Part shown: in pieces, positions 9,701-61,000 of the stretch
How the letters are laid out: every line of letters starts with the position of its first letter
Position numbering within the stretch: the stretch's first letter is position 1
From: Muricea muricata
Lineage: Eukaryota > Cnidaria > Anthozoa > Malacalcyonacea > Plexauridae
Direction of reading: 5' to 3'
Length of the DNA: 64,000 nucleotides
NCBI GenBank assembly: GCA_963855995.1
Contig: OY979718.1
Span: forward strand, 59,994,564 to 60,058,563
The notes under the pieces: generated by a model
What the model was told of the DNA's origin: nothing
Seen by the model: the letters and a program-made list of their open reading frames with translations, nothing else
The model's database searches: none
Made by a program: the position numbers and the translations under genes

Positions 9701-10661
9701 GCAAATATTTGTTATTTTAGTTGGATCATTGATAATTTTTGTGAGGTTTAGTTCAGGGGATACATCGTTCAGTGCTTTCTGTTCCTGGCTAGTCTTTAAC
9801 AAGTTGCAATTCAGATCCCCGAGAATAAAAATCGGTTTTCCATATAGGAGAGCTTGTATGTAATTAGGTTTGAAAAAGCTCTCAAAACAGACCACAGGAC
9901 AGTCAGGTGGGCGGTACGAAACACATATTAAAAGTGATTTGAATTTTTTACGTTGAACTTTTATTCAAAGTTGATGGAAATCTGTTTCAGAAATCTCCGA
10001 AAGTTCTTTTAATACGGAAGCTTTTAGTTCTTTCCGAACATGGGCGCAAACGCCGCCGCCCCTTTTATGACGGCGATCAAGTCTGAACAAATTGTAGCTC
10101 GCAATGCCGACTTCAGTACACGTTGTGTTCAACCATGTTTCGGATATTGTAAGCACATCGATATTTGATGAAATCGCTAAATATCTTAGTTGAACAATAT
10201 GGGCTGTGTTCCTCAATGAGCGAATATTTAAGTGGACATTCTTTAAACCAGAACGAGTTATGGAAGTATAGTTTTTGTGGATTCGTCAATCGGAGTTGTA
10301 TTAACTGCAATGTCATTGTTATTGGATATATTGCTGTATTTACGAACAGAAGTTTTATTGCCATTTCTATTAGTTATTATGGGGAGTATGGGAATGAACT
10401 CGTGAGACGTAGAGGCTCGTGGTAAAGAGGTTAATGTTATTTGGGTGATAAGTTCCTGGTTCTCCTTCGGACAAAATCCAGGTAGTTTAGCCAATCTCTA
10501 GTTTTGGTACGCCGATGTTTGCCGTGAGAACGCCAATGAAAAGGAGATAGTTCGAAATTGTCTGCAGTCTTGACGCTTGGTATTTCAATTAAGGGTAGAT
10601 GATTAAAATCAATACGTGAGTTATGACGCTGTTTTAAAACTGTGTTCAACACTTCACGCAA
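6720..10661 (-). mobile_element. CR1/Jockey-like non-LTR retrotransposon (endonuclease + reverse transcriptase), degenerate
   Basis: Runs from about 10660 down to 6720 on the minus strand. Endonuclease motifs: LNIRSLRN (near 10220), TISETWL, DRRHKRGGGVCAHVRKE, FILGDLNCN (near 9830) and ISDHLLVYA (near 9620). The linker continues through LWKTINRYIPGKEKE (about 8025) and DEFNQYFTSLGRNAAEE. Reverse transcriptase (7514-6903): LVLLDLFKAFESVSH, THGVPLGAILSPLLF, YVDDSKALL (catalytic YVDD where FADD is usual) and INPGKTKFLL. A UAG stands before DLGVFLDSHLTYDFH. Several frameshifts and the inserted foldback at 8045-9165 show it is inactive. Confidence 0.88.
8045..9165. mobile_element. ~1.1-kb foldback (giant imperfect palindrome) interrupting the LINE
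   Basis: The left arm CAGCTGTTAACGACCAAATT..., GGAGCCAAGTCAAATTCAAT and CTTGGTC (8045-8180) is inverted on the right at 9045-9165. Inner blocks also pair: TTATTTTGACTAAG and AAGAGGATTAAA (8240-8285) with 8945-8990, and TTTTTGAAATTGCTGATT (8340) with about 8860. Arms of ~450 bp therefore make up almost the whole insertion. The outermost ~50 bp of the left arm resemble the LINE's own coding strand on the right side, so the break point is not clean. Confidence 0.7.
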
Positions 10662-40632: not shown

Positions 40633-41511
40633 ATTTAAAACTTCAGTATTTCCTAGACATAACAAAAAACATAACCTCTTTTCTCTTATCGGCTTGTTCG
40701 ATATTGGATATTAAAGTAGACCAAAGATGTTTCCGATAAAAATACACTTACATTCTATTTGCCACGCATTAATATGCTCTTTAAGTTCATTTGGGTAGAA
40801 TAACATCAAATGATGTTGGCAAATGTACCACAACTACATCTATACTGTCAGGAGGAGGGGAATGAGAAATCCTCTATGAGGTTTCTTGAATCCCTGACAG
40901 ATCTAAAGAAATATATCAATGAAATTGGGCTGGTGATGCATTATTATGTATAAGATACGGTTCAAAAATTAATTGGTCTTCAATTATACAGTTCAATGAA
41001 CAAACAACACAATATTCTTAGCCCTCTTGCTAGGCAGAACTTATGACAAGAGATGATAGAAAGATAACTGACTTCACAAATCCTGTGGGTAACCCTCACA
41101 TGGCTTGCAATCATAAAAGAACTGTAGCTTTACTACCCACCTGTAACATTCATCAATGAAGGACTCCTACCGGCTAACACTCATTTTAACAAGTTCTAGT
41201 GAAAAACCTGCCTTTGTGAAACAAGCCACCCGAACAACATAGACAGTCAATTTTCTGTTCATATATGGGATTCCATTCGATACCACCACGATTAAACTTC
41301 GATAACGTATCGAGATTAGCCCTTACTGTAACGGATAAAAGAAGAAAGTCTCATGGATGACTTCATCACGCTAATCAAATATGTTTTTTTGCTTTCTATA
41401 TTTTTTACTGTTGACAGCAGGTAAATATATATGTCTATATATATATACACTTAAAAAGTTGAAGTTGCAGGTCCTTTATGCATTAAATAGTGTTTTATAC
41501 ATTAAATAGTG

Positions 41512-41732
<221 letters not shown>

Positions 41733-41796
41733 TCATCACTGAAGAGTGCTATACTAAGTGTAGTACGAAACTAAAAGTTTTTGTGTCTTATTTGTT

Positions 41797-41902
<106 letters not shown>

Positions 41903-42424
41903 CCTAGCATGAAACACAGTGAACGATATAGTTGTGAAATTTTTTTAAATAAAGTATTTATATAACTGCCCTACCCTACGTATTGAGCACTGTTTTATAT
42001 ACATATACATTAGATGTACATTATTGTATCATTGAATTAAAAATGTCCAACATGCTTCCAGAATAAACTGATATGTTAAAGGCTCAGTAGAAACTGATAG
42101 TAGCCCATGGCCATGTCATGTTACACTGTCAAAGTCTGTAGCTACAGCAAAAAATTAATATGAATGAATCCTAATCCTAAATCACCGATTTCTGAAACTA
42201 CTGATTATTTCATATACAAATTCTTCAAAAGTTAGAACTGTTGCAGATTTATCCATGCAAAATTGCTTGTATACGATGTTTGTGATTACAGGAATAGAGA
42301 AACAATGATAGTATAAATGAGCGTTGAGACAAGCAAGTATTCACAACCCTTTATCTAACGATCTTTGCGGCATGAGGAGAATTGAGCCAATGGCTATATA
42401 ATAACCTACTTTATATATTTACAG

Positions 42425-43471
42425 TTTTGTTTAATGTTTATTTCTAATATCAAAACAGCCTCACGGCTCCACACCAGCCATATGAAACACTTATCAGGAC
42501 ATCACAAATGGAGGATATTGGATAATGTCGAGAGACAAAAACAAATTACGAAATCAAGAAGACTTGGTGCAGTACATGAGTTTAACCGACATAATATATT
42601 AAAGATGCACAAAAATGAAAGTTATAAAAATGAACCAATGGCACACATAAGTTATCTTCATTTAAGAAATGGTAACATAAATACACCAATGACATTTTCA
42701 CAACAATGTTTATGTGCACATAATTATATACGACGTCTTCATAATGTGCCAAAATTGCGTTGGTCTGTCGAGTTATCACGTGAGGCTCAAAATCAAGCAG
42801 ATAAATTGGCATCGATGATTGTATCCAGTGACCTGAAGAAAAAAGATGAAAATATATATGTTGATAGCATTGTGGATCTTTCGACATCGTGTCGTCGTGC
42901 TGTGGAATTCTGGTATTCGGAAAGCAAAAAGTATAACTATACAGAAAATAAAGTTTCTAACGACACAGGTATTAAATTAATTATATGTGAATTGGCGTAT
43001 ATAAGATATGGGTAAGGTAAAAGCATGGCGATTATAATTGCTTTGGAGTAGAAGATTTTTAAAGATAGTTAGAGTTTAGGGACTGACAACTATATTTCCG
43101 TCAAACCTTTTGAAATGGGATAGCTATGTTTTATATAGGATGTCATCGGACGTTATCGTCTCTCAAACGTAAATCTTGTACTTACGTTTTTCGAGAAACA
43201 TCAAGCTGCTTTTTTTAAGGCACGAGAATTGGGAAACTGCTTTTATCCCCGATACCGTGATCTACCCCCCCCTTCCTCTGTTATCATCTTCTTTAATGAG
43301 TTTTGAAATAAATCTTAGAGCACTTCACTCGTCTTATTTGGCAGTCAACATCACAACTGGGTGTTGGTCGAGCAATTTCTGGAAAAGGAAAAATTATCGT
43401 GGTAGCAAAATATCGACCTATGGGCAATGTAGAAGGAAAATTTAAAACAAACATCAAAAAGAACAGTGAAG
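42425..43471 (+). CDS. CAP/SCP domain exons of the composite secreted gene
   Basis: Two exons (42425-42968 and 43319-43471) flank a 350-bp phase-1 intron with donor g|gtatta and acceptor cttag|AGCAC. The join reads SNDT-E-HFTRLIWQ. That restores the classic CAP order: N-terminal helix with HNxxR and PxLxW, the acidic DEN segment, the AxExWYxE helix, then HFTxxxW, LGVG and YxPxGN. The four residues that form the CAP cavity in GAPR-1-like proteins (two His, two Glu) appear to be present. The domain ends near NVEGKFKTNI, as in GLIPR2/GAPR-1 relatives. Donor AAG|gtattt at 43471/43472 leads to a 124-bp intron. Confidence 0.88.
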
Positions 43472-46400
43472 GTATTTTAATAAATGTCAAAACTATAAAA
43501 AACTCAAGTGTTCATGGAATTACCCTGTCTTGCATTGTATACCAGCAAAATGTTGAACTACTGTCCCTCAGACAAAGTTTTGTGTTCTCTTTTAGTTGAC
43601 AGTTCGAACTTACAAATAGCTTGTCACGTCAGGAATAGCTTGAGTAAAACAGTTGGTCTAGGTGGTTTCGGAACTACTTTTAAAACTATATACTTTAAGC
43701 CCTCTTCGGCACCAAAAAAAACTAACGACACTTTAGCGAATATTATTTACGACGGTTCGCCAGGTCCACCAAGTACAACTAGTGATTTTCCAGAGTTACC
43801 TAATTCTGCTGGTACTTCACCGGGTCCACCAAGTACCGCTAATGGTCCACCTGGTGTTTCTGAAATATCAATTGGGCACCCTGCTATATCTGACAATACA
43901 AAAGGTTTACCTGATAACCCTAGTGCTTCTAGAATCTCAATAGGACCACCTGGAAGTTCTAGAAATTCAAAAGGTCCACCTGATAGTTCTGGTAATTATG
44001 TAGAACGTCCAAAAAACCCTGGTATTTCTGGAGGTTCACCTAGTAGCTCTGAAATCTCAGTTAGTCCACCAGGAAGTAAAGCGAACGGTGCACGTTATGG
44101 TCCCGGTAATTCTTTAGAACGTCCAAATAGTCCAGGTATTTCTGAAGGTCCACCTGTAAGTTCAAAAATCTCAATTGGTCCACCAGGAAGTTCCGATAAC
44201 ACAGGAGGTCCACCAGATAGTTCTGGTAATTCTGTGGAACGTCCAATAAGTCCCAGTATTCCTGGAAGTCCACCTGGTAGTTCTGAAACTTCAGTTGGTC
44301 CACCAGGAAGTTCCGTAGAACGTCCAGGAAGTTCTGTAGAACGTCCAATCAGTCCCAGTATTCCTGGCAGTCCATCTGGTAGTTCCGAAACTTCAGTTGG
44401 CCCACCAGGTAGTTCCGTAGAACGTCCAGGAAGTTCTGTAGAACGTCCAATCAGTCCCAGTATTCCTGGAAGTCCACCTGGTAGTTCTGAAACTTCAGTT
44501 GGCCCACCAGGTAGTTCCGTAGAACGTCCAGGAAGTTCTGTAGAGCGTCCAATCAGTCCCAGTATTCCTGGAAGTCCACCTGGTAGTTCTGACACTTCAG
44601 TTGGTCCACCAGGTAGTTCCGTAAAACGTCCAGGAAGTTCTGTAGAACGTCCAATCAGTCCCAGTATTCCTGGAAGTCCACCTGGTGGTTCTGAAATTTC
44701 AGTTGGTCCACCAGGTAGTTCCGCTAACAAAGAAGGTCCACCTGATAGTTCTAATAACTCTGTCGAAAGTCCAATCAGTCCCGGTATTCCTGGAAGTTCA
44801 CCTGGTAGTTCTGAAACTTCAGTTGGTCCACCAGGTAGTTCCGTAGAACGTCCAGGAAGTTATGTAGAACGTCCAATCAGTCCCAGTATTCCTGGCAGTC
44901 CATCTGGTAGTTCCGAAACTTCAGTTGGCCCACCAGGTAGTTCCGTAGAACGTCCAGGAAGTTCTGTAGAACGTCCAGTCAGTCCCAGTATTCCTGGAAG
45001 TCCACCTGGTAGTTCTGAAACTTCAGTTGGTCCACCAGGTAGTTCCGTAGAACGTCCAGGAAGTTCTGTAGAACGTCCAATCAGTCCCAGTATTCCTGGA
45101 AGTCCACCTGGTGGTTCTGAAATTTCAGTTGGTCCACCAGGTAGTTCCGCTAACAAAGAAGGTCCACCTGATAGTTCTAATAACTCTGTCGAAAGTCCAA
45201 TCAGTCCCGGTATTCCTGAAAGTTCACCTGGTAGTTCTGAAACTTCAGTTGGTCCACCAGGTAGTTCCGTAGAACGTCCAGGAAGTTCTGTAGAACGTCC
45301 AATCAGTCCCAGTATTCCTGGCAGTCCATCTGGTAGTTCCGAAACTTCAGTTGGCCCACCAGGTAGTTCCGTAGAACGTCCAGGAAGTTCTGTAGAACGT
45401 CCAGTCAGTCCCAGTATTCCTGGAAGTCCACCTGGTAGTTCTGAAACTTCAGTTGGTCCACCAGGTAGTTCCGTAGAACGTCCAGGAAGTTCTGTAGAAC
45501 GTCCAATCAGTCCCAGTATTCCTGGAAGTCCACCTGGTGGTTCTGAAATTTCAGTTGGTCCACCAGGTAGTTCCGCTAACAAAGAAGGTCCACCTGATAG
45601 TTCTAATAACTCTGTCGAAAGTCCAATCAGTCCCGGTATTCCTGAAAGTTCACCTGGTAGTTCTGAAACTTCAGTTGGTCCACCAGGTAGTTCCGTAGAA
45701 CGTCCAGGAAGTTCTGTAGAACGTCCAATCAGTCCCAGTATTCCTGGCAGTCCATCTGGTAGTTCCGAAACTTCAGTTGGCCCACCAGGTAGTTCCGTAG
45801 AACGTCCAGGAAGTTCTGTAGAACGTCCAGTCAGTCCCAGTATTCCTGGAAGTCCACCTGGTAGTTCTGAAACTTCAGTTGGTCCACCAGGTAGTTCCGT
45901 AGAACGTCCAGGAAGTTCTGTAGAACGTCCAATCAGTCCCAGTATTCCTGGAAGTCCACCTGGTAGTTCTGAAACTTCAGTTGGTCCACCAGGTAGTTCC
46001 GTAGAACGTCCAGGAAGTTCTGTAGAACGTCCAATCAGTCCCAGTATTCCTGGAAGTCCACCTGGTAGTTCTGAAACTTCAGTTGGTCCACCAGGTAGTT
46101 CCGTAAAACGTCCAGGAAGTTCTGTAGAACGTCCAATCAGTCCCAGTATTCCTGGAAGTCCACCTGGTAGTTCTGAAACTTCAGTTGGTACACCAGGTAG
46201 TTCCGTAGAACGTCCAGGAAGTTCTGTAGAACGTCCAATCAGTCCCAGTATTCCTGGAAGTCCACCTGGTAGTTCTGAAGCTTCAGTTGGTCCACCAGGT
46301 AGTTCCGTAAAACGTCCAGGAAGTTCTGTAGAGCGTCCAATCAGTCCCAGTATTCCTGGCAGTCCATCTGGTAGTTCCGAAACTTCAGTTGATCCACCAG

Positions 46401-49400
46401 GTAGTTCCGTAGAACGTCCAGGAAGTTCTGTAGAACGTCCAATCAGTCCCAGTATTCCTGGAAGTCCACCTAGTGGTTCTGAAATTTCAGTTGGTCCACC
46501 AGGTAGTTCCGCTAACAAAGAAGGTCCACCTGATAGTTCTAATAACTCTGTCGAAAGTCCAATCAGTCCCGGTATTCCTGGAAGTCAACCTGGTAGTTTT
46601 GAAATTTCAGTTGGTCCACCAGGAAGTTCCGATAACACAGAAGGTCCACTTGATAGTTCTGGTAATTCTGTTGAACGTCCAAACAGTCTCGGTGTTTCTG
46701 GAGGTCCACCTGGTGGTTCTGAAACTTCAGTTGGTCAGCCTGACGTTTCTGGTAACTCAGTAAGGCCGCCTGATAATTCTGTTAGTTCAAAAGTTCCACC
46801 ACCGCCAGAGCAACAAATCCTTCCAAGTACCGCGATCAAGCCAACGTCTACGATGAAGCAAATCAATAGTTCTACTAGAATCCTATCATCTATAGGTTTA
46901 CCAGTTCCATGGATGATTCCTTATAATCATTCTGTTCCGATTTTCAACTTGCCAAAAGAACCAAGTCATCCAGAAACTCTTGGTAAGTATAATCCTGCGT
47001 GTATATTTTAACATTCCTGATACCTGTGACATGTTGTCAATGTGTACATACTGCCGCAATGCAGTTGTGTTTTTCTTGCTTACATTGTTTGTTAGCTCTG
47101 CTACACCCCAACAATCTTCTGTGCAATTTAGTTTGTTTCATTAGTGAATCGTTTACCACAATATTAAGCGTGGGACAAGATAAACAGACTTATCATGGAA
47201 TTTCATCGCAGCTGAACTTCCTACAGTAACTTGTATTGATTTCTAGCATACTTTTGCCTAGGGAGAAGCTTCAACGTTAGTATCATCCTCCCACAGCAAC
47301 TGTTCAAAACGGACTTGTTGCGTACAAATAGTCTGATATTTCACCAACTGAAAGATGCTCTAGAGCAAGCGGTATGTCACACGCACAGTATAATCTAGTA
47401 CTGGGGCCTGTTATCTGAAGGTTGGACAGCACTGTTCACCAGATAGTAATTTTTAAGGTAGATTTAAAAATCTTTTATTTATGAATTGTTGAGCTCATGT
47501 CTAAATTACATAGCTTTGTAAACATTTTAACAACGATTGATAAACCACTATACCTGACTTTCGTACTACCGGCCCCAGAACTCAGAAGAACAATCCGACG
47601 CAAGAAGTCGTAGATAAGAAACCCATTCTTATTTCACAGTTTTAGCGCTTATTCACACGAGAACAATAACGATAAATCGTCAGAAGTATTATTTCTGAAA
47701 ACCTTAATCAAGTTCTTATGGAGCTTTCTGGCGTTGGTTCACTCCTAAAGGCACCAGAATAGCCTGGTTGAAATTTCTATTAACTTAGTTGCACTTGTGT
47801 CGACAAAAAGTGCGGCTTATTGAAATACTGACTACGTACCATCAAGCACTGCACGAGTCATAAGAATTGGGATCACGCATATCAACAGTGTACTTCATGC
47901 AACGAAGTTATAAAATACATATTGATAAAACAATTCAATGTTGCTCATTTCCCCTCCTAAATATGTAACTAGGTAACAACATATTACATTGTATTTTTAG
48001 ATCCGCAACCTGTATTCAGATAATTCGTACTTTTTGGATGTTCAATTATTAGAATTCCGGTAGGTTTAGTATGTAAATCAATTTAGAATTGTAAAAAATG
48101 TATGTAAAAAGCGTGTTGGTTAAAGTTTTAAATGAGGTTGCGTAGTAACCAAAGTTAATATGTTAGGAACCAGCGCGCGATCTGGGTCTGAGTGACCCTC
48201 CTGCTGAGCTGGATATATAAGAGCATCAGTCGAATTGGGTGTGGTCCCTTTGCTAATTTTATTCTAACGACAGCTTAGCATTGGGCGTAGTCCCGGTGCT
48301 AATGTTGAATTTGGCAACAGCTTAGCAATTTGGTGTGGTCCCTTTGCTAATTGCGTTTGAATGAAAGCCAGTGAGTACTTGGGTGTCGTTTCTGTGCTAC
48401 ATTTATTGTGGCGACACCTCGGCAATTAGTTTTTGGTCTGTTGCGCTGATGTTATCTGTTACGCTATTGATTTAAAGTTACCGTGTGGAGGTGGTTAGAA
48501 CGGACGGGGAGTTAGTTACTTGGAGTGGTGAATTTCAGAGAAATATCACTTTGGTGGTCAGGCCCTCGCTGTACAGATTCACATGACTCGGACCTGAATC
48601 CAAGCAACACAAATGCCAGACTTTAACTGACCGCGTCTGCACCTAACCATCCACACGGGTAAGTATGGTGACAACGGATACTAAATGAGGTTACGTAGTA
48701 ACCAAGGTTAATATGTTAGGAACCAGCGCGCGATCTGGGGCTGAGTGACCCTCCTGCTGAGTTGGATATACAAGAGCATCAGTCGTGCAGTGGGAGCATT
48801 CGCTAGCTAATAAAGCCAGCTGCAGCAATTTGCGGGAAATAGAGTCAGAAAAAAATTTTTTTTAACTGACATATAGCCTAACTTTGTGCGTTAGTTTCCA
48901 TCAAACTCAGCTCGGTGTGATAAGGTGCAGACGTTTCGGTGGTCAGGCCCTCGCTGTACTGATTTACATGACTCGGACCTGAATCCAAGCATCCAAGTAA
49001 CACAAATGCCCAGACTTTAACTGACCGCGTCTGCACCTAACCATCTACACGGGTAAGTATGGTGACAACGGATATTAATAATGTAAATATGTAATGTAGA
49101 GTAAATCTTAAGTCTCAAAAGTTTTTTCTAAATCAATCCCCAACAATCATAGCTTGCATGCTTTGTAAACGTCCCTAAGTCATTATCAATACTTTTAGGG
49201 AAAAAATAAAAACTCATATGCACTTTAACATTATAGTGAATTTGGCTTAAAAATACAGCCTAATCAATTGCCGAACTGTCATGATCTTCTCTCGTTTTAT
49301 TGCCCTGACAATACCATCTCAGAGGGTATCATCTTGGCTAATATCTTCGCATGTGAAATGCTTGACGCTTGCGAGGCGTAATTCTGAATGAAAACATTCT

Positions 49401-50012
49401 GTAAAATGGGAATAATAGATGTCAGTCTTGCGAACTGTCACTCCATTGTTCAAATAAGAGAAACAATATCTTTCGAGTGCTTTCGGAGGTCGTCGGACGC
49501 TTTTTTAAGACGTGAAGCTGCTTTTTTAAGACACGTGACACTGCCTTTTCCCGCTGTGAAGCGTGACCGCAGCCTCTTCTTACCACCCTCTTCTTACATG
49601 CTATTTTAAAGAAATTATTCTACATTAGCTGTGCACGTACTCCTCCACCTGAAAGATGACTTGTTAAAGACATTATACATACATAAAACTTTATTTAGGC
49701 ATGCTAGCTCCAACAACAAAATGCTGATTTCCATAGGAGGGGGGAGGCGTGTAACAAATTACATAAAGGTATATACAAGAGAATGCATTATAAGAATAAA
49801 AAAGAATTTAGTTATATATATACAAGGACCATTACTAAAGGATTAGAGCTTTAATGCTAAATAAGCAATCTCGTAGTCAGGGCCGGCAATCCTCTTATTC
49901 CTCTATGGAGGAATCGTGAGGCTGTGGGAAAAAAGGTTAAAATAATGCATGGAATTCGCTGCAACCATTACGTAATAGTTCAAATACGAGACAGAGGACG
50001 TTACCGGAAAGA

Positions 50013-50046
<34 letters not shown>

Positions 50047-51865
50047 GCGGCTTAATTTGACTCAACACGGGAAAACTCACCAGGTCCAGACATAGTAAAG
50101 ATTGACAGATTGAGAGCTCTTTCTTTTCGACGAGCTCTCGGACTGCAACGAACTCCTCGTACTTGAAATCCCGGTAAAGTCCTCTGTCGAGTATTTGAAC
50201 TGACTTCTCAAACTCATCAATTATGCAATTCAAAGTACTAGTACGTTGAAAAATTACTACTAGTAGTTGACTACTAGTAGTTTGAAATATGACTACTAGT
50301 AGTTTGAAAAGGAATACTTAATCAGCTCCGCTGTCCCCTGGGACATTTCAAATCCGCCACCTGCTTTTAAGACACTTTTCCTGTAGTTTCAAAACACTAA
50401 TTAAATATGTATTTCTTTTGAATTTCCTTCATGAATTATTAATGATTTTAGAATGTTGTATCCAGTACACTAGTAAGGTGCGCAGTATTTGAACTGTTGA
50501 AGATGGTTACTCTTGAACAATGGGCATTAGATTTATATTCCCTTGATTAGTGCATAGGACGCAGCTTAATTTAATTTGGTTCTATGTTTTTTGACTGCTC
50601 CATTAGGTGAATAATACTAGTATACTAATGACCATACATTATTTACGCAAACTAACACAAAAATTTGCTTATAAAGCACTCCCACATGGAAAATGAAAAA
50701 TCGGATTCCGTTAAATGATGCCTCTTTGTACCATCGTTTTTCATTGGGATCGGGCTCGAAATGACAGAGCTTTGTATAGATTCAGCTTCGCTTCCTTAAG
50801 AGTTAATGATTAAGAGGGAGTTGGTCAGACTAATTATCAAAGAGGATCGCGGGCTCTGGCTACGAGATTTCGTCTTATCTTAGATTCAAGTCCACGCATA
50901 GCACGCAGCGTATAACCAAATCAAAGACAAACTTGAAGCTTGTATCGGTCTGACGTCAAAACATAGTCAGTAATAGCGTTATTGTGCCTGTTTAGTGACA
51001 TAATAAACAATACATCTACTGTATTAAAATCATTAAACTTTACTGTTCTCTGCTGCTCATGATTTGCTACCATGACCGCGTTGCACCAGCTGTGAAAAAG
51101 AACAAAGGGGTTCAAATATCACTTAGACTGATAAGACTGTTTTGCTTTCTAGCTTTTGCGAGTTTTTTTTAGCTATGTGTAAATTTTCTGAGAAGTTTCA
51201 GTATCCTAACTGATATAATATTTTTTTCTAGAGCAATTAACCAAGACCTAATGCGTCGCTCAACTTTACCTGGCCACAATGTAAATACGGACTACGGCAA
51301 ACTTGTCACAGTTGTGATCTTGAGGTTAAATTTTAATCAAGTTATGAAAGGCCATCTAGTTCTCCTTAGTCGTCAATTAAACAGCGGTGTGCTTGGGAGT
51401 GTTGCTGTTCAAAGAACTTTATTTGCAGGTAATATCCGACCATATTTTAGACCTAATTATAGCGCAATATATTGTCCATAATTTAGTGCAATACACTGTT
51501 GTTGAAGTTCTTAACTAAAATGTAAAAAGGTTCAAAACTTCCTTGAAGAACTATCTCAAAAAATCTATATGGATACTTGCAATCAGTTAGGATGGGACGA
51601 CACAGCATCGGCATTTAGTCCTATATAGTTGTGAAAGAAAATGAGAAGTACGACTTCATGAAAACTGCGTTGCAGTACATAAAGTATTGAAACTTTGCAT
51701 TCCTTATACAAGGCAAACTCCACACAAACTGACTTGAAGAAACTATAACACAATTTGTTTATTTCAGCTCGCCTCGACAAGAATTCGTGCACGACAATGT
51801 GCCAAAACTCGAATATTTGTTTCCCAGCATGCAAGATCAACTGCTGTTGGCCTGGTAACAACTGA
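42425..51865 (+). CDS. Secreted CAP/SCP-domain protein with mucin-like repeat tract, SEA-like domain and six-Cys C-terminal module (multi-exon)
   Basis: Seven exons join in frame: 42425-42968, 43319-43471, 43596-46982, 47247-47371, 48001-48059, 51232-51428 and 51768-51865, the last ending in TGA at 51863-51865. All introns are GT/AG and phases match (1,1,1,0,2,1). Counted from ATG 42434 this gives about 1517 residues. The CAP domain lies at about residues 90-225: CAHNYIRRLHN, PKLRW, DEN, AVEFWYSE, then HFTRLIWQ, LGVG and YRPMGN. A long Pro/Ser/Gly/Glu repeat tract follows, then a SEA-like domain, then a six-Cys tail. No transmembrane segment follows the SEA region, so secretion is likely. The first listed exon follows an acceptor (acag at 42421-42424) and begins FCLMFIS, which looks like the end of a signal peptide whose start lies in an unseen upstream exon. 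CAP proteins are usually secreted; the role here is unknown. The combination recalls cnidarian nematocyst or mucus proteins (inference). Confidence 0.82.
44220..46700 (+). repeat. In-frame tandem repeat tract coding for Pro/Ser/Gly/Glu-rich sequence (102-bp unit, 426-bp higher-order unit)
   Basis: The core unit is 102 bp (34 residues), with recurring SVERPGSSVERP, PSIPGSPPGSSE and TSVGPPGS. Variant units carrying SANKEGPPDSSNNSVE return at 44691, 45117 and 45543, exactly 426 bp apart, so four core units plus 18 bp form a higher-order repeat. Another such variant appears near 46485. Every unit length is a multiple of three, which keeps the frame open. The product is rich in Ser, Pro and Gly with regular Glu/Arg, has no Cys, and should be extended and possibly O-glycosylated. 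Flanking non-periodic relatives of the unit (43760-44220 and 46560-46800) suggest the array grew by internal duplication. Confidence 0.93.
47247..51428 (+). CDS. SEA-like domain encoded by three exons of the composite gene
   Basis: Exons 47247-47371, 48001-48059 and 51232-51428 splice in phases 0 and 2. Together they encode a fold-like pattern: GRSFNVSIILP, then TNSLIFHQLKDALEQAIRNLY, then FLDVQLLEFR, then GKLVTVVILRLNF, then GHLVLLSRQLNSGVL. This beta-alpha-loop-beta-alpha order, with a long helix before the fourth strand, is that of SEA domains, which commonly sit next to mucin-like Ser/Thr/Pro stalks. I do not see the GS[VIA] autoproteolysis site in the expected loop, so this copy is probably not self-cleaving. 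The call rests on pattern and context, not on a profile search. Confidence 0.6.
48130..49080 (+). mobile_element. Two tandem LTR-like units (solo-LTR or TRIM-like) in the CAP-gene intron
   Basis: Two direct copies occur (about 48132-48683 and 48684-49077). Both start AATGAGGTTRCGTAGTAACC and share GCGCGCGATCTGG, a TATA-like GGATATAYAAGAGCATCAG, the block TGGTCAGGCCCTCGCTGTAC and the end CACGGGTAAGTATGGTGACA. Middle parts differ: the first contains a ~47-bp minisatellite, the second has TAATAAAGCC. TATA box plus a TGGTGACAACGG stretch after the end resemble an LTR followed by a primer-binding site. No gag-pol was seen. Confidence 0.6.
48233..48430. repeat. Degenerate ~47-bp minisatellite, four copies, inside the first LTR-like unit
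   Basis: Each copy reads roughly TTGGGYGTRGTCCCTTTGCTAAT, then a variable stretch, then CGACAGCTTAGCA. Starts are near 48234, 48280, 48330 and 48379. The second LTR-like unit lacks them, so the array expanded or was lost after the units diverged. Confidence 0.7.
50250..50312. repeat. Short palindromic repeat cluster (ACTACTAGTAGTT)
   Basis: The self-complementary AACTACTAGTAGTT-like motif occurs three times within about 60 bp, separated by GAAATATG and GAAAAATT-like spacers. It is inside the CAP-gene intron. Confidence 0.85.
51768..51865 (+). CDS. Terminal exon: six-cysteine module resembling a minicollagen cysteine-rich domain
   Basis: Acceptor atttcag|CT at 51767/51768 continues the phase-1 codon. 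The exon encodes 31 residues ending in CxxxC-x5-CxxxC-xxx-CC-WPGNN and then TGA. Cnidarian minicollagen domains use CxxxCxxxCxxxCxxxCC, so number, order and the final CC agree and one spacer is longer (5 instead of 3). Hydra NOWA, a nematocyst wall protein, also combines an SCP/CAP domain with such cysteine modules (established knowledge). That makes a capsule or extracellular-matrix role attractive, but it is inference here. Confidence 0.6.
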
Positions 51866-52048: not shown

Positions 52049-55000
52049 TTAATGGAAGGACGGCTGAAAATTAGTATATTGTTGATTTTGGGAAGACTGA
52101 TTTAAATTCTGTGATTGTGCAATTTGTCCTTGTAGTGTTAGATCATTTGTGAGTTGATTTGGTAAAGTCATTTTAGCGGGAGCTGACATCTGGCGTTGAA
52201 GGTTCACTTGTGACGTCACAGGACTTGAACCACCAACTGAAAATAAAAACAGCGAAAAGTAACGAAATAGTCGTAGTGCAGTGGCGTAGAAAGAAAGTAA
52301 TTATTGTGGGGGCACATATCTATGGCACAACCCAACACCATGAGCTATATAATATCACTATATATTAGCCCCACGCCCCCCCCCCCAGTTCCTACGCCAT
52401 TGTAGTGTCAATTTTTACTGCACAAAAGTATGGTGGCCCATTGTTATCAAACATTTTTTCTGTGTATTTTTTCTAAGAAGTTTTATTTCACGTTTATAAA
52501 AATATATGAAAATAAAAATTTCTACTTTTTTTATATTTATTAATTATCCATTCTTATTTTTTTTTTAAATGAACAATACTAACATGGTCATAAGAATGAA
52601 AAAAAAAATAAAATATTGAACGGACCAGCGTTGTCAAATACGCGGTCAAAAAGACTGGTACTTATGCAGCACGTTGTATACATGGTCCCGGTCACTGCTC
52701 GACGTGCACATGTTTACATAATTCTACCGATGCTACTTTTGTCAGTGCCTTTTCCAATATTACCTTTGTGTATTAAGTCTTCGCTCATAAACCATTTATA
52801 TGAATTATGAAACGCAAATTCAAACCAAAGGAAACTTGGGACAGTTTTGAAAAAAGAGTGGGTGTGAAACGAACTGGAACGACTGCTAAAAAAGTTGGAA
52901 TGAACGTACCAAATGATATTCTGGTGCAAAGAATGTCGCCGAATGCATCGGGTCGCCTCAAGAAATATGAACCCTTGGACACGCGTGATTTTATCCCGTT
53001 TGATGATTATGAAGAGTTAACCATAGATAACGTAAAAGAGGCCTGCGAAAAGTTCTATAAAGCTCCCGAAGGGTCGTGTGATATACTTGCATCCGACAAG
53101 GGGCCATCGTGTACCAAACTCGAACAACTGAAGGGCAAAAAAGTGTATTTTATCCGATTTTTTCCTCCCGAGCAAGTGATCGATAGCTGCAATCCTCAAA
53201 CATCATCGGCAGTTAAGGCAAGTTCTTCACCAATCAAGCAAAATAGCCCAAAGATATCAGTGGTTACTCCAAAATCACTTTCCATCAGTCAACTTCTTCG
53301 AGCTGGCAAACTTGTAAAACCAATAAAACAAAACATTGTTACCCTTGAACTGGAAACATTTGATATTCCAAAAATGCAATGGATAAAGAAAGGATCTTAT
53401 CAATTTGATATTGAAGAGAATAAGTTTTCCAGTGGAGCTTTCAGGGATTCCTTCAAAGCTCGAGCAATCAGTCCAGACATGCAGTCAAATCTCTGGGTAG
53501 TAAAGCAGTACCAACCATCAGCTAAAAACACTATAACTGATGATTTGCATATGTCTCTGGAAGACCATACCATAAATTATAGAATGCAATGCATCATCCA
53601 TAATGCCTAAATAATCTATCAGATAACAATGAATTGTTGCCATCTTTCCTGTCTCCGTTCCTTTGTCTATTCGGAGGAATCGTGGAAGCATCTCTGATTT
53701 GTACAGGTATTCCAGATATTTTTTTCCTACTATCAGTGGATTGGAGTTAGAGTAGCAAACAAATATGAACAGTATTTTTCGTGAAAAAGTATCCATGCAT
53801 CCATATACGCCTAGGGGGAAAGTCGAGTTTTGGTACCCACACAGCTTATCATGCCCGTCCAAAGATACAACCCATAAGGGCCCTTCTGACGTGAAAGGCT
53901 TCTTCGCAGGCTTTGCTTTCTTTTGCAATTTCCTACCCTCAACGCCTTCGGGGTCTAAGTCCCACATCATGTTATGAACAAGGTGTCGTGGTACTTTAAC
54001 GTTGTGTTCTATTCTTAATTTTTGATTCATGGCCCTGTAACCAAGCAACGTCCCTGGCCCATCGAGTTCTTTCTGAACGGCGTCTGCTACAGTTTCAAGT
54101 GGCACGTCGTAATCAATATATCTTATATCAAAGAATCTTAAACGTCTGTCAAGGGTGGCCAAGCTCCATTTGTATTGTACATAATCTCGTTTCATGTAAT
54201 CTAATATTTCTGATCTCTTTAAATTTTGCCTAACGTAATTTTCGAGGTCGCTTTTCAGAATATCATCAACTTTCCAGTCCGCCATATTGATTTACAATAC
54301 TGCAACTACAACTATAAGTTCCAGTCTTTTTGACCGCGTATTTGACAACGCTGGTCCGTTCAATATTTTTTTTTTCATTCTTATGACCATGTTAGTATTG
54401 TTCATTAAAAAAAAATAAGAATGGATAATTAATAAATATAAAAAAAAAGTAGAAATTTTTATTTTCATATATTTTTATAAACGTGAAATAAAACTTCTTA
54501 GAAAAAATACACAGAAAAACAATGGCTACCGAAAAGGCTACTACAGAAAAACAATGGATAACAATGGGCCACCATACAAAAGCCAATTTTTACTCCACCG
54601 TATCAATTTAAGCACACAAATTTCACTTTACTAATTTTACTTCAGAATTTTCAGGTGCGCGATGAAAATGTAAATGGACGGAATAAGGCAGGAATGTAAT
54701 TGATGGCCAACTTATTTTGGAATTCTTGATCTGACAAAATACTTGCAAATTTTCCTACGTATTTTCCAATCAAGCAACTATGTGCATGGACCAATGATTT
54801 CATTGTCCCTGTGTATTCTGTGTCCCTGTGGATAGTGGTATCAATTTTCCGTGCGCAATACAAAAGTATACAAAATTCGCAAACTTTTCAAGGTTATATT
54901 TTACGCATTTTACAACATTTCACAACCAAACTTCGCAGTTATACTAACTTTAGGATGTTCTTCAATGCTGTGGTAATGAATTTAACTATTTCGATTTTTT

Positions 55001-58000
55001 CAAATTACTTGGCTATTATGCAATTGGTCCATTCTGCGATTAAAATTTCAGTTTCCGCGCTTTGTAAACGTGCAACTATTTTGGAATGTGTGATACAAAC
55101 TTAGGAAGCAATCGTCGCAACGCAGACGCATTGCTATCAATGACGAAACCTCCTAATTGAAGACTAAAATTTTTCACGATCGAGACACGATACCTGCATT
55201 TTGACGCAGAAGATTCGATATTATTCCTGATTGCGAAAACGTTTTCTGGACAGGCACCACTGGATTAAGGCGCAGAGAAGTTGACGTCATTGGATGTTGT
55301 AAAGGTGTGGTAGCTTGTGAAGCATTAAGTTGTGACATTATGAAGGATTGGGGCATTGCTTCTTGGTTCAAAGATTTCTGATGAACGAGTGCTTGTGATT
55401 GTTGGAGATTCAACTGTTGCGATGTATCAACACTGCTAGCTCCTATGACGAACAAAAGAGAAAACTCACTAGCTTCAAGCATTTATTATATATGTTGCTT
55501 TGCATGTTCGTATGACTTAACTGTTAATGTTCTTCAACTATACAAGGAAATGGTAAAAATCAAATCAATACAAAAATGATTGCATTATTATTACTATACG
55601 GCTTGTAGAAACACAATCTATCGAACAAATTATTTTTTGTAATATTTAATTCATTAGTTGTAAGGTTGTTCATTGCATATCAGTAAGCCGCAAGTATTGC
55701 TATTTTCGATAACATTGTCAAGGCACTTTTTGCTGTACCTGATTATTATGCAGCTTGAGTAACAGTGCTTACAATCTACGGAGATGGGCAAGCAAATAGA
55801 CCTTACACAAGCAAAACAGAACTCGCACAGGGAAAAAAACCTCTTGAAATATCCAAGAAACTACCCGTCATAAATTTACTATAAAATGAAAAAAGCAAAA
55901 GGAGCGACAAAGGTGCGCGACAAAACTTGACAAGAAGCCATAAAGCGAAAGCTGCTAAACAGTCTTTGTTAGCAAGCAAACGGCTTTTCGACAGAGCTGC
56001 AGTAGATGAAGTCTTTGGGTTAAATGGGCTGGAAAGTGCATGGACATAGATTTAAAAACAGTTACATTCACAGATGAATGTCGAGCAAGTTTAGATGGGC
56101 CTGATGGGTGGAGCAGAGCAGAGCTTGGCTTGCCATAGGCGAGGCCAGACCATCAAATGATGCAGTATCAAAGAACTTGATATGTAACATTTTTCTTTAA
56201 TATTGTTATATGTATCATATGCAATGTATCATATGCTTCTATTTATGAATTGCATAATAATGTGATAATTAGTATCATTAGTATTAATGTACTAATTAAT
56301 ATTATTATTGAGATTATCATTAAAAAGTATCAATATTTGCTGTTTACTAAAGTGCAATAAATAACCTCTGGACGTTTCACAAGTTTTGGACAACTAATCG
56401 ATGAAATATCACTAATAAAAAACCCGATTTGCATAATACTTACTACATGAGGTATATATCGATTTTAGTGAACAACCTGAAAATGGTTGTGATGAAAAGG
56501 TATTGAGTGCTGACTGAGTACCTGCCATTGAGCTTGACGTAACAGATAACCCTGCATGACTTAAAAGTTGTGGATTTTGACTACCAGCAAACGTGTAACC
56601 CTGTCCTGTTTGTATTAAGTGTTGTATAGACGACTCTTCCATCTGGAAAACATATAAACAATACGTTAGAACGTACAGTAGTTACATTAAACAGTTTGAA
56701 ACAAATTCATCGAGGGGGGGGGGCATAAATATGTCTGACTGGACATTTAAAGGTCTTCTGGTGAAATTCAGTGTGAACTTGTAATTCAATCTTATAATTT
56801 CGTCATTAAATACATTTACAGAATATTTGTAATAGTATGTTTTGATATATAATATTTAAGAAATGGAAAATATTTTCGTGTTTCGCAAGACACGAGGAAA
56901 ACGCCCAAGTGTTTCTATAACTTGATAGAAACACAGAAAAAATGTTTTCTATTTCCTTTATCAAATAACCATTTTGAAAACAAAAAAGGTAATAAATTGA
57001 CTTTAATCACACTTAGTGAAATATTCTTGCAATTTTTACCTTGTCCGTGTAAAATAATAAAAATTTCAACATTTTTCTAAACAGTTAATTCACAAAATTA
57101 AAACTTACTTTATTCGTTAATTTCGAGACTAAATTCAGTAAAAAATGTTTTCTTGAGTATTTAGGGCAAGTTTTATATAATAATACATTTCTTTTAAAAA
57201 ATTAATCATATTTGCAACTTTGCCACGTTGTTTTAGTACAGTTCGATTTTTTGATTTGTCATTTTTTATTAGAATGAACTATTACTTACATGCATTGTTG
57301 AAGCAGGAACATTTCTTCGTTTCTGTGTTAGTTTCACATTTGGTGGAATCTGTTTGTTTGCTTGATTTCTATTTGAATATATACCGGAAGCACCAGGGCG
57401 CTGAGTTTGTAGAGCATCTCCTTGAGACTTTGGTAACAACATTACTTGTGGAACACCAGAAAACTGACTGCCTTGTGCTCTTTGAAGCCTGTGCAACAAG
57501 AAATTACGACGTTCATATGCTCCGTAAACACCAGCTTTCACTTAATTTCATCCTGTGAGTTAAATATGTGAAACTTGCACAACTCAACACTTACCTTCGT
57601 GCGTCAAGTTGTGATTGAACTGCATTGTGTGATGGGTAAGGGCGCTCCGATTGTGGCAGCGCTGGGGGGTTTAATTTGACGAGTGTCTGTTGCTGTTGTT
57701 GTTTATTTGGCTGTTGTTTATGTTGTACTTGTTGGTGTTGCGGTTGATGTAAAGTCATCACTTGTAGTAATTGTTGCTGCTGTTGTTGTTGTTGTTGTTG
57801 TTGGGGTTGTAGTTGCTGGGTTTGTTGTTGTTGTTGTTGTTGTTGGGGTTTTTGTGGCTGCAGCTGTGGTTGTTGTTGTAGCTGAGTTTGAGGTTGCTGT
57901 GAAATCATTTGCTGCGGTTGTTGCTGTAAATGCGGTTGTTGTTGTTGTTGATGTACTCGAGGTAAGGGCTTTGCCATTTTCCTCGGACGTTTCTGTTTAG

Positions 58001-61000
58001 ATTGTTCATCGCTCAAGTGATCGTCGAGTCCTACTTGGCACGAATCCAACCTCTCGCGTTTAACGGCTTCGTTAAGGTTAACCATCGAGTTATAAGGTCT
58101 TCCTGCACCTACATAAAAACCCAATAAATATTCCACGGACACATTTGAATAAATCTGCGCGATGTACATGTCCTATCCTATCCTATCCTATCCTATCCTA
58201 TCCTATCCTATCCTATCCTATCCTATCCTATCCTATCCTATCCTATCCTATCCTATCCTATCCTATCCTATCCTATCCTATCCTATCCTATCCTATCCTA
58301 TCCTATCCTATCCTATCCTATCCTATCCTATCCTATCCTATCCCGTCTCTTTTCACGCATCCAATTAATGTACGTACAATTTCATACAAGTTTTCACGTG
58401 TAGCTTTTCCCCATGAATTGTATCGTCAATCAAGTATAATTATCTACCTTGTTGAAGCTTTGCAGGAGATGGTCCTGCTGGAGGTAAATCCATGCTGTCG
58501 TCATCAGAATCGTCAGGAGGATTCAGGTAATAACTTAAAGGTTTACGTTTTACAAAGTTATGATAATGAGCACGCGGCAAATCTGTTTGGTAAGGTAAAG
58601 GTTTCCGTTCAAGTCTCACAGCACCGAACCAAGAGAACGACATCGGAGCAGGATTTTTATGTCCTTCTATCAAATCCCACGGACTGATCTTTTGTCGGCC
58701 TTTGACTTGCAGTCCCTGAGATACATAACAAAAAAGAAATAATACACATTCGAACAGACATTGTAAAATGTTATAGTTACAAGATCAAACCTCATTTGCC
58801 TCATCATTTTCCAAAGTCGATGACTGTGATTCAGACACAATTGAGAAGTCATTTTGTTGGCTTTTCTCAACAGTGACAACTTCAATAGAGCGACCAGGAA
58901 AAGGAAGCAACTGCTTGCAATACTCGATGTCACGAGGATTCTCCACGAGCATACGCTGGAAAGAAATTAGTTTTAGATGAAATTAGTTTTAAGTGAAACT
59001 AGTGAAACAAGACGTGTCTAGTAGACGTGTCTACTGTAATGATGTACATCAGAAAGGGAGCCACAATCTACATAGTAATGTCCAACAGCTCGCTAGTAGT
59101 GGAACGATTTATCCTTCTCGAAGGTTTTTCGTTGTACACAAGTTGACAACTTCAGAATCTCTTCGTATAGACTTAATTAACTTAGTGCTGCTTTAAAGTA
59201 CATCAGTAGTTTTAATATATCTGTACCTTCATTTTTTTAAATAATCCAGTGCTAAACTTTCTGCCATCGTCGGCTAACTGGTTCGTCGTTGACTCCGTAG
59301 ATGTGATAACGTTGATCAAAACCGACAACATATCAAGTATATTTGTGTAGTGATTGCTAACGAAAGAATATCAAAATAAACAACTACTGCATATTTTGGC
59401 TTGAGGTTCTTTTCGTTAATTCTTCCAAATAAGCATTTGTGAGAAATTAGGTTTTCAACGAATATGAAGCGTTGAAATGTACTATGTATGAATATTTATG
59501 TCACAATTAAACCGTAAAAATAGAATCAGTTAGTGAATCATGTTTTCTTGTATGTTACGTAATTGCTAATACTTTTGTCAGGAACATTACCACAGATAGA
59601 AGCAATCGCTATCCCGTCAGAAACATTTGGTTGTGTGCTATATACGTAGTCTTTTGCAAACTACGACCCTGGTTAAGTCGTGGAAAAACTATTTGCAGTA
59701 AAATAGAAAATATCCACCATAGATTTTGGTTTATTCAGATGTGGAAGAACATGCAACCGTTACAACTTGGAGGGAGGGTCAGATGTTCACATTTTCTCTG
59801 CTTATTATAACCGTTCCAATGTTTACTGAAAGAAAGTTTGCAATAGTTTTGTATCGCAGTACGTCTAGCACCTTAATTGCCATCACATTAGCTGCGGCAT
59901 GTTTTTGCATTAGAAAAACATGTACCTTGACTCAGTAGATAAAATACCACTGCTAATTAAATGAAATAACACAGCACTCCACTCTGTTGCCAAATGTAAG
60001 TTCTTTGGGTTTGCAATTGAATCGAACATCACACCAACCTATAATGCAAAAATGCCAATTTTAAAAAGCTTGCAATGTACGGTATGCAGATTTTTGAGAT
60101 TACTTGTCATGCCGTTTCATCAAGAATTTGTAGAATCATTTCTTTTTACCAATATTTGATACAATTCTGTTGAAAAACATGTTCCATTGTAGTCTAGGTT
60201 CAGTACAAAATATTTAATTTATCACGCCTTAGATCGAGTTGTTAGTAAATGAATAATACATACAATAATCGAATTCTGATTTGTCGTGATATTCAAAAGT
60301 CTCTTCAAGTACATGCTACCAGTCACGATCTTTTGATCAAGTCATAAAAAAACTTAGATTAGAAGTCAAATTGCTAGTAGCTAGTATTAGGCCTGCCTGC
60401 AAAGAATCAAGATGACATCATCTTTATTATTCTGGAAAATTATTTCCATTTTGTTAACCTGCAAATTACAATAATCGCTCACCAATCGAAGTCTTAAATC
60501 AAGAGCTTCCTGAAGATGTAGCTTGCTATTTTTCTCAAGAGGGTGGCTCTCCTACGCAACAAGAGACACTCGTAACTATTTTACCATTTGCACTGTCACA
60601 TCCATAACATGCAGGGCATATAAATTAGCAACACTATATGTACAAATTCATGGCAGGAAAACGTGAAACAACATATATGAACAACATCTATAACGAAAAT
60701 TTCTTCGTAAATAAACTCACAAGTTAAAATGGGTCGTTTTTTAGACATATTTGGCCTACTCGCAGTTCGTGCGTTATCAGATGCCTGCTCGTGTTTAAAT
60801 AGTACATAAGTATAGGTTATCATACGAGGGACAAGGCGAGATCAGTTTTATCGCTTGAGGGACGACATCATCACTTGTGCTTTATAATTTTATTTGGGTC
60901 AGAATTCCTACAGCGGGACAAAAAGCGATATCGCGGGACATATCGTTTTTATTTCACCCTGTTCATCACCTTATCACCCTGACAATGGCGCAAGTGTGTC

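What the first reader, a model, noticed from the sequence alone, without database searches (positions are those of the whole stretch)
42425..51865. Undescribed-looking domain combination: CAP + giant repeat stalk + SEA-like + minicollagen-like cysteine tail
Seven exons join without a single phase conflict into a secreted-looking protein. CAP domains and six-Cys minicollagen-type modules occur together in the Hydra nematocyst wall protein NOWA (known). I know of no described protein that also has a ~900-residue Pro/Ser/Gly/Glu repeat stalk and a SEA-like domain. It could be a new capsule-wall, tubule or mucus structural protein.
Basis: partly seen in the sequence, partly recalled or inferred. 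Interest (0 to 1): 0.88.

Follow-up and report, generated by a model that had tools for sequence, protein, structure and literature searches.

The report
Stalked relative of nematocyst protein NOWA
A gene, probably from a jellyfish-type animal, encodes a large secreted-looking protein related to the stinging-capsule protein NOWA, in which a very long repetitive stalk stands where NOWA has a sugar-binding domain.

Summary
CAP, giant repeat, SEA-like and six-cysteine parts join in one gene model: 8 exons, 41353-51865, 1520 aa, phases consistent, including a predicted upstream signal-peptide exon. CAP is certain (8.1e-18). SEA is weak: 1.2e-4, below the curated cut-off, and lost without the 59-nt exon 48001-48059. 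The tail spacing C3C5C3C3CC is not canonical but equals that of Hydra CPP-1.

The same genome holds such a gene. Its SEA is split over three exons with the same phases (1-0-2-1) and a 59-nt middle exon; SEA+tail align at 42.7 bits.

Best reading: a NOWA-related gene in which a ~1,000-residue Ser/Pro/Gly stalk on a phase 1-1 exon stands in the lectin's place, ending in one cysteine module; probably a disulfide-anchored flexible tether of the stinging capsule or tubule. No expression evidence exists here, and CAP and SEA sequence alone do not single out NOWA.

The parts
41353..41420 (+). exon 1: predicted signal peptide MDDFITLIKYVFLLSIFFTVDS
   Evidence: the 1 candidate found in 30.0-42.4 kb under my filter; 2 such starts on the + and 6 on the - strand of the whole window; phase 2 fits the best-scoring acceptor, 42478. 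No dedicated signal-peptide predictor was available
42478..42968 (+). exon 2: basic N-terminal linker and first part of the CAP domain (CAP from about 42692)
43319..43471 (+). exon 3: second part of the CAP domain (EHFTRLIW...VVAKYRPMGN)
   Evidence: Pfam CAP 8.1e-18 across the junction; GAPR-1 1smb 2.6e-21; acceptor weak
43596..46982 (+). exon 4, phase 1-1: short linker, repeat stalk and pre-SEA linker
   Evidence: open 3.4 kb frame, strong splice sites
43757..46792 (+). repeat stalk, 1012 aa, units of 34/40 aa (SVERPISPSIPGSPPGSSETSVGPPGSSVERPGS)
   Evidence: Tandem Repeats Finder periods 102/120/426; unit list; 34-aa units pN/pS 0.46, 40-aa units 1.22
47262..47371 (+). exon 5: SEA-like beta1-alpha1 (secondary structure by analogy)
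   Evidence: same phases (1 in, 0 out) as the NOWA-type gene on contig C15
48001..48059 (+). exon 6, 59 nt: SEA-like beta2 (IRNLYSDNSYFLDVQLLEF)
   Evidence: SEA match lost without it; a 59-nt exon with phases 0/2 in the C15 gene
51232..51428 (+). exon 7: rest of the SEA-like domain; no G-SVV motif at the place expected by analogy (GKLV); not covered by the Pfam match beyond its first residues
51768..51865 (+). exon 8: C-terminal six-Cys module and stop
51788..51847 (+). cysteine module CTTMCQNSNICFPACKINCC (C3C5C3C3CC)
   Evidence: PDB search gives NOWA 2nx7 E=1.7 and a ferredoxin E=1.8, neither significant; same spacing as the CPP-1 CRD

Best explanation
The gene is a relative of the cnidarian nematocyst protein NOWA. 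It keeps NOWA's order CAP ... SEA ... cysteine module, but an exon coding a ~1,000-residue Ser/Pro/Gly repeat stalk stands where NOWA has its C-type lectin domain. Mechanism, partly inferred: the protein enters the secretory pathway by its signal peptide (predicted); the CAP and SEA domains are compact end pieces (shown by sequence); the stalk is a long disordered, extensible spacer without cysteines (composition shown, elasticity inferred); the C-terminal six-Cys module joins the disulfide network of minicollagens and other CRD proteins (inferred from CPP-1, Cnidoin and NOWA). The product would be a one-end-anchored flexible tether in the nematocyst wall, tubule or capsule matrix, without NOWA's proposed lectin-chondroitin zipper activity.
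For: Domains. NOWA architecture CAP-LectinC-SEA-repeats in print. NOWA-type gene in the same genome: CAP 73.2 bits, Lectin_C 68.3, SEA 21.3 (as weak as ours); final CRD CPGRCPSVCAPSCIKGCC, whose 6 of 6 listed PDB hits are NOWA or mini-collagen, at E 0.13-5.8. SEA exons 110/59/197 nt here, 113/59/161 there, intron phases 1-0-2-1 in both. SEA+CRD aligned 42.7 bits, E=1.3e-10 as a pairwise search. 23 of 23 SEA family matches elsewhere in the genome lie in one uninterrupted frame. A broad CRD pattern matches 3 times in the window plus all 24 fetched loci: twice in the NOWA-type gene and once here. The intron after CAP is phase 1 in both genes; the stalk exon is class 1-1 and the lectin exon ends in phase 1. 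Tail spacing equals the CPP-1 CRD.
Against: No expression or protein evidence. SEA sequence alone does not single out NOWA: ours scores 29.3 bits to the NOWA-type SEA and 12.3-28.5 to 18 of the 23 other SEA matches, and the NOWA-type SEA itself scores higher (31.2) with one of those 18 than with ours. Our CAP is closer to a GAPR-1-like CAP of the same genome (90.9 bits by tblastn) than to the NOWA-type CAP (50.8 bits by blastp), and the introns inside CAP differ. One cysteine module, no lectin. The exon-by-exon SEA search favours unsplit domains. The fetched loci are 10 kb each, so CRDs further off would be missed.
Confidence: 0.6

Rival explanations
1. It is a secreted mucus or glycocalyx protein of gland or epithelial cells: a CAP-headed, Ser-rich mucin-like protein whose SEA is mucin-derived and whose six-Cys tail cross-links mucus rather than capsules.
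For: SEA with Ser/Pro repeats is the mucin plan; sea-anemone mucins have PTS regions and SEA (PMC9080433, passages); this genome has SEA domains in long repeat-rich frames and a cluster of CAP domains separated by Pro/Thr-rich repeats; ours scores 28.5 and 28.1 bits with two of those SEAs.
Against: Stalk is 30.5% Ser+Thr, below the >40% quoted in PMC9080433; no transmembrane segment; split SEA plus CRD as in the NOWA-type gene.
Confidence: 0.25
2. It is a soluble CAP protein of the capsule lumen (venom-like), with stalk and tail of little structural importance.
For: CAP proteins are released from Nematostella nematocysts (PMC3627010, section 13 read).
Against: Those proteins tend to be short, with a CAP domain only; here about nine tenths of the protein is something else, and the tail looks like a cross-linker.
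Confidence: 0.08
3. Gene-model artefact: the CAP exons are one gene (reading through exon 3 to the stop at 43597-43599) and the repeat, SEA and CRD exons another.
For: Exon 3 stays open past its donor to that stop, so an unspliced CAP-only product is possible; its acceptor is weak.
Against: The stalk exon has no in-frame Met before residue 1086, the intron between is 124 nt, phases fit throughout, and the same domain order occurs in the NOWA-type gene.
Confidence: 0.05

Closest known systems
NOWA (nematocyst outer wall antigen)
   Same: Signal peptide (predicted here), CAP, SEA and C-terminal cysteine module in the same order; identical SEA intron phases and a 59-nt middle exon in the NOWA-type gene of this genome.
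   Different: No C-type lectin domain; a giant Ser/Pro/Gly stalk instead; one cysteine module, not several; CAP closer to the GAPR-1-like type, with other introns.
CPP-1 and Cnidoin (Hydra capsule-wall proteins)
   Same: Long repetitive Pro- or Gly-rich middle with terminal CRDs that link into the wall; CPP-1 CRD spacing C3C5C3C3CC is identical (passages).
   Different: CRDs at both ends; no CAP or SEA is mentioned in the passages seen; much shorter (Cnidoin mature protein 403 aa; CPP-1 26 kDa predicted).
GAPR-1 / GLIPR2 type CAP proteins
   Same: Closest solved CAP: 1smb, 2.6e-21.
   Different: GAPR-1 is a single domain; of its tetrad H54/E65/E86/H103 (names recalled) only E86 and H103 are kept, the other two aligning with D (read from the alignment).
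SEA-bearing mucins
   Same: Ser/Pro-rich repeats before a SEA domain.
   Different: No transmembrane helix, Ser+Thr 30.5%, CAP head and CRD tail.

Membership tests
NOWA | CAP domain near the N terminus | tested here: met
   PF00188 8.1e-18
NOWA | C-type lectin domain between CAP and SEA | tested here: not met
   No PF00059 at E<=1 in the CAP/linker piece or the stalk exon nor in 7 intron ORFs and 1 downstream ORF of the + strand (not every intron ORF was scanned); no PF00059 place inside the window in the genome search, which scored 150 of 178 candidates
NOWA | SEA domain before the C-terminal cysteine region | tested here: met
   PF01390 1.2e-4, below the gathering cut-off; exon phases as in the NOWA-type gene
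NOWA | several minicollagen cysteine-rich domains at the C terminus | tested here: not met
   one module in the window, also with a broad pattern
NOWA | signal peptide | tested here: inconclusive
   exon 41353-41420 predicted by my own filter only
NOWA | expression in developing nematocytes | not testable with these tools
   no transcript data
minicollagen-type CRD | canonical spacing CX3CX3CX3CX3CC (PMC4863159, passages) | tested here: not met
   C3C5C3C3CC
minicollagen-type CRD | six Cys with a spacing seen in a proven capsule CRD | tested here: met
   CPP-1 N-CRD CPAPCGGDLNCWPTCDATCC has the same spacing (passages; alignment)
membrane or gel-forming mucin | >40% Ser+Thr PTS region (PMC9080433, passages) | tested here: not met
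   30.5%
transmembrane mucin | transmembrane helix after SEA | tested here: not met
   highest 19-residue Kyte-Doolittle mean 1.18 in the 1512-residue model without exon 1
GAPR-1 CAP | metal-binding tetrad H, E, E, H (recalled) | tested here: not met
   2 of 4 kept by the alignment

The most novel reading that the evidence does not exclude
A NOWA-family gene exchanged its lectin for a giant stalk carried on a symmetric phase 1-1 exon, turning a proposed lectin 'zipper' protein of the stinging tubule into a ~1,000-residue elastic tether anchored by a single CRD; expanding and shrinking of the repeat array could then tune the mechanics of the stinging organelle between species.
Probability: 0.35. 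Interest if true: 0.65.

Novelty: new variant of a known kind. Interest (0 to 1): 0.52.

Why it matters
NOWA is thought to drive tubule invagination, probably through its lectin domain (PMC10014300, section 11 part 1 read). A relative that keeps CAP, SEA and a cysteine module but has a huge spacer instead of the lectin is a natural experiment on which parts bind sugar, which cross-link and which set the mechanics. It also suggests that the NOWA plan was modular and re-used by exon exchange.

Tried and rejected
Direct splice of exon 47262-47371 to 51232 conflicts in phase; a cryptic donor after 47375 would repair it but gives no SEA match in Pfam and, in the PDB, one hit to a molecule named b-iTHR-110 at E=0.015, so the 59-nt exon is preferred. 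That control also shows that the PDB hit of the preferred model (1ivz, E=0.0065) is weak evidence by itself. Signal peptide from the ATG at 42434: no hydrophobic core. Upstream exons in phase 0 to 42425: 5 weak candidates; in phase 1 to 42459: 0. Lectin or extra CRDs hidden in the introns: none among the ORFs scanned or by pattern. Collagen-like stalk: 0 G..G..G.. motifs against 3.5 in shuffles. A weak hit at C3:12.6 Mb (E 0.37) showed no CRD. Relatives by peptide patterns in viral contigs: none confirmed; an exact 26-base stalk pattern in bacterial/archaeal genome contigs: 0. Selection on the stalk is only partly shown: 34-aa units pN/pS 0.46 (16 units, 11 distinct), 40-aa units 1.22 (5 units, 3 distinct). 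Structure prediction was not tried because the tool states that it takes only sequence readable letter for letter from the DNA, and these domains are spliced.
Full report
What is there. On the + strand between 41353 and 51865 eight exons join in consistent phase into a 1520-residue protein. I add an upstream exon, 41353-41420, coding MDDFITLIKYVFLLSIFFTVDS. It was the one signal-peptide-like exon from 30.0 to 42.4 kb under my filter, and its phase fits 42478, the best-scoring acceptor of the next exon. In the whole window the filter finds 2 such starts on the + strand and 6 on the - strand, so a chance hit is unlikely but possible; no dedicated predictor was available.

Splice sites. By a simple matrix the donors rank at the 88th to 99.6th percentile of the window's GT sites; the acceptors of the exons at 43596, 47262, 48001, 51232 and 51768 rank at the 82nd to 99th percentile of AG sites, but that of exon 43319 only at the 39th.

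CAP. Pfam PF00188, E=8.1e-18, across the junction of exons 2 and 3. Closest solved structure is GAPR-1 (1smb, 2.6e-21). Of the GAPR-1 tetrad (residue names recalled) two of four residues are kept.

Stalk. 1012 residues, 28% Ser, 21% Pro, 15% Gly, no Cys, mainly 34- and 40-residue units. Among 34-residue units pN/pS is 0.46 (16 units, 11 distinct), among 40-residue units 1.22 (5 units, 3 distinct). It is not collagen-like and falls below the 40% Ser+Thr quoted for mucins.

SEA. PF01390 gives 1.2e-4 (22.6 bits, cut-off 26.4) over profile positions 2-64 of 106; dropping the 59-nt exon 48001-48059 loses the match altogether. The one PDB hit at E<=10 for the C-terminal part is 1ivz, named hypothetical protein 1110008I14RIK (recalled as a Muc16 SEA domain), at E=0.0065; the model without the 59-nt exon gets an unrelated hit at E=0.015, so this is weak. 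The mucin-type cleavage motif is absent at the place expected by analogy.

Cysteine tail. CTTMCQNSNICFPACKINCC is the only C3C3-5C3C3CC match in the window and was not seen in 60 Markov windows. Its spacing, C3C5C3C3CC, fails the canonical CX3CX3CX3CX3CC (PMC4863159, passages) but equals the CPP-1 CRD CPAPCGGDLNCWPTCDATCC printed in PMC6910907 (passages). Its two PDB hits are a NOWA CRD, 2nx7 (E=1.7), and a ferredoxin (E=1.8), neither significant.

Same transcript. The stalk exon has no in-frame Met before residue 1086 and so needs an upstream coding exon; the CAP exons, in phase and 124 nt away, are the evident partner. An unspliced CAP-only product ending at 43597-43599 remains possible.

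Known architecture. The legend of Fig. S5 of PMC11565402 (passages) describes Craspedacusta NOWA as signal peptide, CAP, LectinC, SEA and three C-terminal repeats, and marks SEA domains in an alignment with Hydra, Hydractinia, Clytia and Sarsia NOWA. PMC10014300 (passages; section 11 part 1) describes NOWA as a C-type lectin with several minicollagen CRDs that acts in tubule invagination. So CAP + SEA + CRD is not new.

The genome. The window lies in a 453 Mb genome of 74 contigs, unnamed. Of the 42 CAP matches (63 of 63 candidates scored) one has a lectin match (114 found, 150 of 178 candidates scored) within 20 kb: contig C15 near 11.18 Mb, both on the - strand, 2.8 kb apart. Reading that stretch shows a NOWA-type gene: signal peptide MYKVIVLFTCVGSVIA, CAP in three exons, lectin, SEA in three exons, then CRD - Gln-rich stretch - CRD. 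Pfam: CAP 73.2 bits, Lectin_C 68.3, SEA 21.3. The last CRD is canonical; the 6 PDB matches listed for it are NOWA or mini-collagen, at E 0.13 to 5.8. This makes a cnidarian the likely source. A medusozoan is my guess: PMC3627010 calls NOWA medusozoan-specific, PMC4195985 says no orthologs were found in genomes of cnidarians other than Hydra (passages), but PMC6161364 names a highly derived NOWA homolog in Nematostella (passages). I could not name the species.

The link. The SEA exons measure 113, 59 and 161 nt in the C15 gene and 110, 59 and 197 nt here; the intron phases before, within and after SEA are 1, 0, 2, 1 in both; the next exon opens with DPDSCSSFCLNSRNACTSPDCPVYCC there and has DKNSCTTMCQNSNICFPACKINCC near its start here. 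SEA+CRD align at 42.7 bits, E=1.3e-10 in a pairwise search. By contrast 23 of 23 SEA family matches elsewhere in the genome sit in one open frame, though that search favours unsplit domains. A broad CRD pattern over the window and all 24 fetched loci (14 of them around those 23 SEA matches) matches three times: twice in the NOWA-type gene, once here. SEA sequence alone is weaker evidence: ours scores 29.3 bits with the NOWA type, 12.3-28.5 with 18 of those 23, at most 18.5 with 100 shuffles; and the NOWA-type SEA scores 31.2 with one of those 18, more than with ours.

What differs. There is no lectin among what was scanned, one cysteine module instead of several, and a CAP closer to a GAPR-1-like CAP of the same genome (90.9 bits, tblastn) than to the NOWA-type CAP (50.8 bits, blastp), with other introns inside CAP. 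The stalk exon is class 1-1. The lectin exon of the C15 gene ends in phase 1, and two candidate phase-1 acceptors precede it without an intervening stop. Exchange of one symmetric exon for another is the simplest account, but it is inference; the CAP could also have been swapped.

Mechanism. Shown: domains, exon order, composition, gene relation. Inferred: secretion, disulfide anchoring by the tail, elasticity of the stalk, location in capsule or tubule. Cnidoin and CPP-1 show that a repetitive core with CRDs is a working design for capsule walls (passages). Against NOWA membership proper stand the missing lectin and the single CRD, so I file it as a NOWA-related variant, not as NOWA.

Limits. 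The large protein database was off, the Hydra nematocyst proteome paper is not held, and the search for further NOWA-type genes did not complete. My ten literature searches and the passages that I read showed no CAP protein with a giant stalk, SEA and CRD, but they cover open-licence papers only and no supplementary files.

Noticed in passing
G000 contig C5:5845001-5885000 (L001-L004): A run of CAP domains separated by very long low-complexity repeats (PGTPATPGTP, KPAIAG, ATGTPATG), one open frame of 1295 codons; looks like a multi-CAP repeat protein or tandem genes. CAP plus giant repeat is thus not unique to the window in this genome.
   Followed up: partly
L023/L024 (G000 C15:11168001-11188000, - strand): NOWA-type gene whose C terminus is CRD, then about 300 residues partly rich in Gln, then a canonical CRD.
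   Followed up: partly
window 48129-49078: Two tandem copies of an LTR-like sequence (104-nt, 57-nt and 69-nt direct repeats in the same order) in the intron between exons 6 and 7.
   Followed up: no
window 50056-50174: Degenerate fragment of eukaryotic 18S rRNA (Rfam RF01960, 53 bits) in the same intron.
   Followed up: no
window 52049-58784 (- strand): Convergent neighbour with Gln-rich exons and a WDLIEGHKNPAPMSFSWFGAVRLER stretch that reminds me of MED12 (recalled; Pfam gave no support).
   Followed up: partly
window 53521-54291 (- strand): ORF with a weak integrase-core match (rva_4, E=0.0025, below cut-off); the overlapping + strand ORF 52804-53607 has no Pfam match.
   Followed up: no
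window 6906-10285 (- strand): Remains of a non-LTR-type retrotransposon: reverse transcriptase PF00078 1.2e-21 and a weak endonuclease match, E=0.0057.
   Followed up: no
G000 C3:49021534 and C3:50271812 (L020, L021): Two SEA-bearing genes identical in the printed SEA stretch, 1.25 Mb apart: a recent duplication or an assembly duplicate.
   Followed up: no
window 43312-43599: Exon 3 stays open past its donor to a stop at 43597-43599, allowing a CAP-only product by intron retention.
   Followed up: partly
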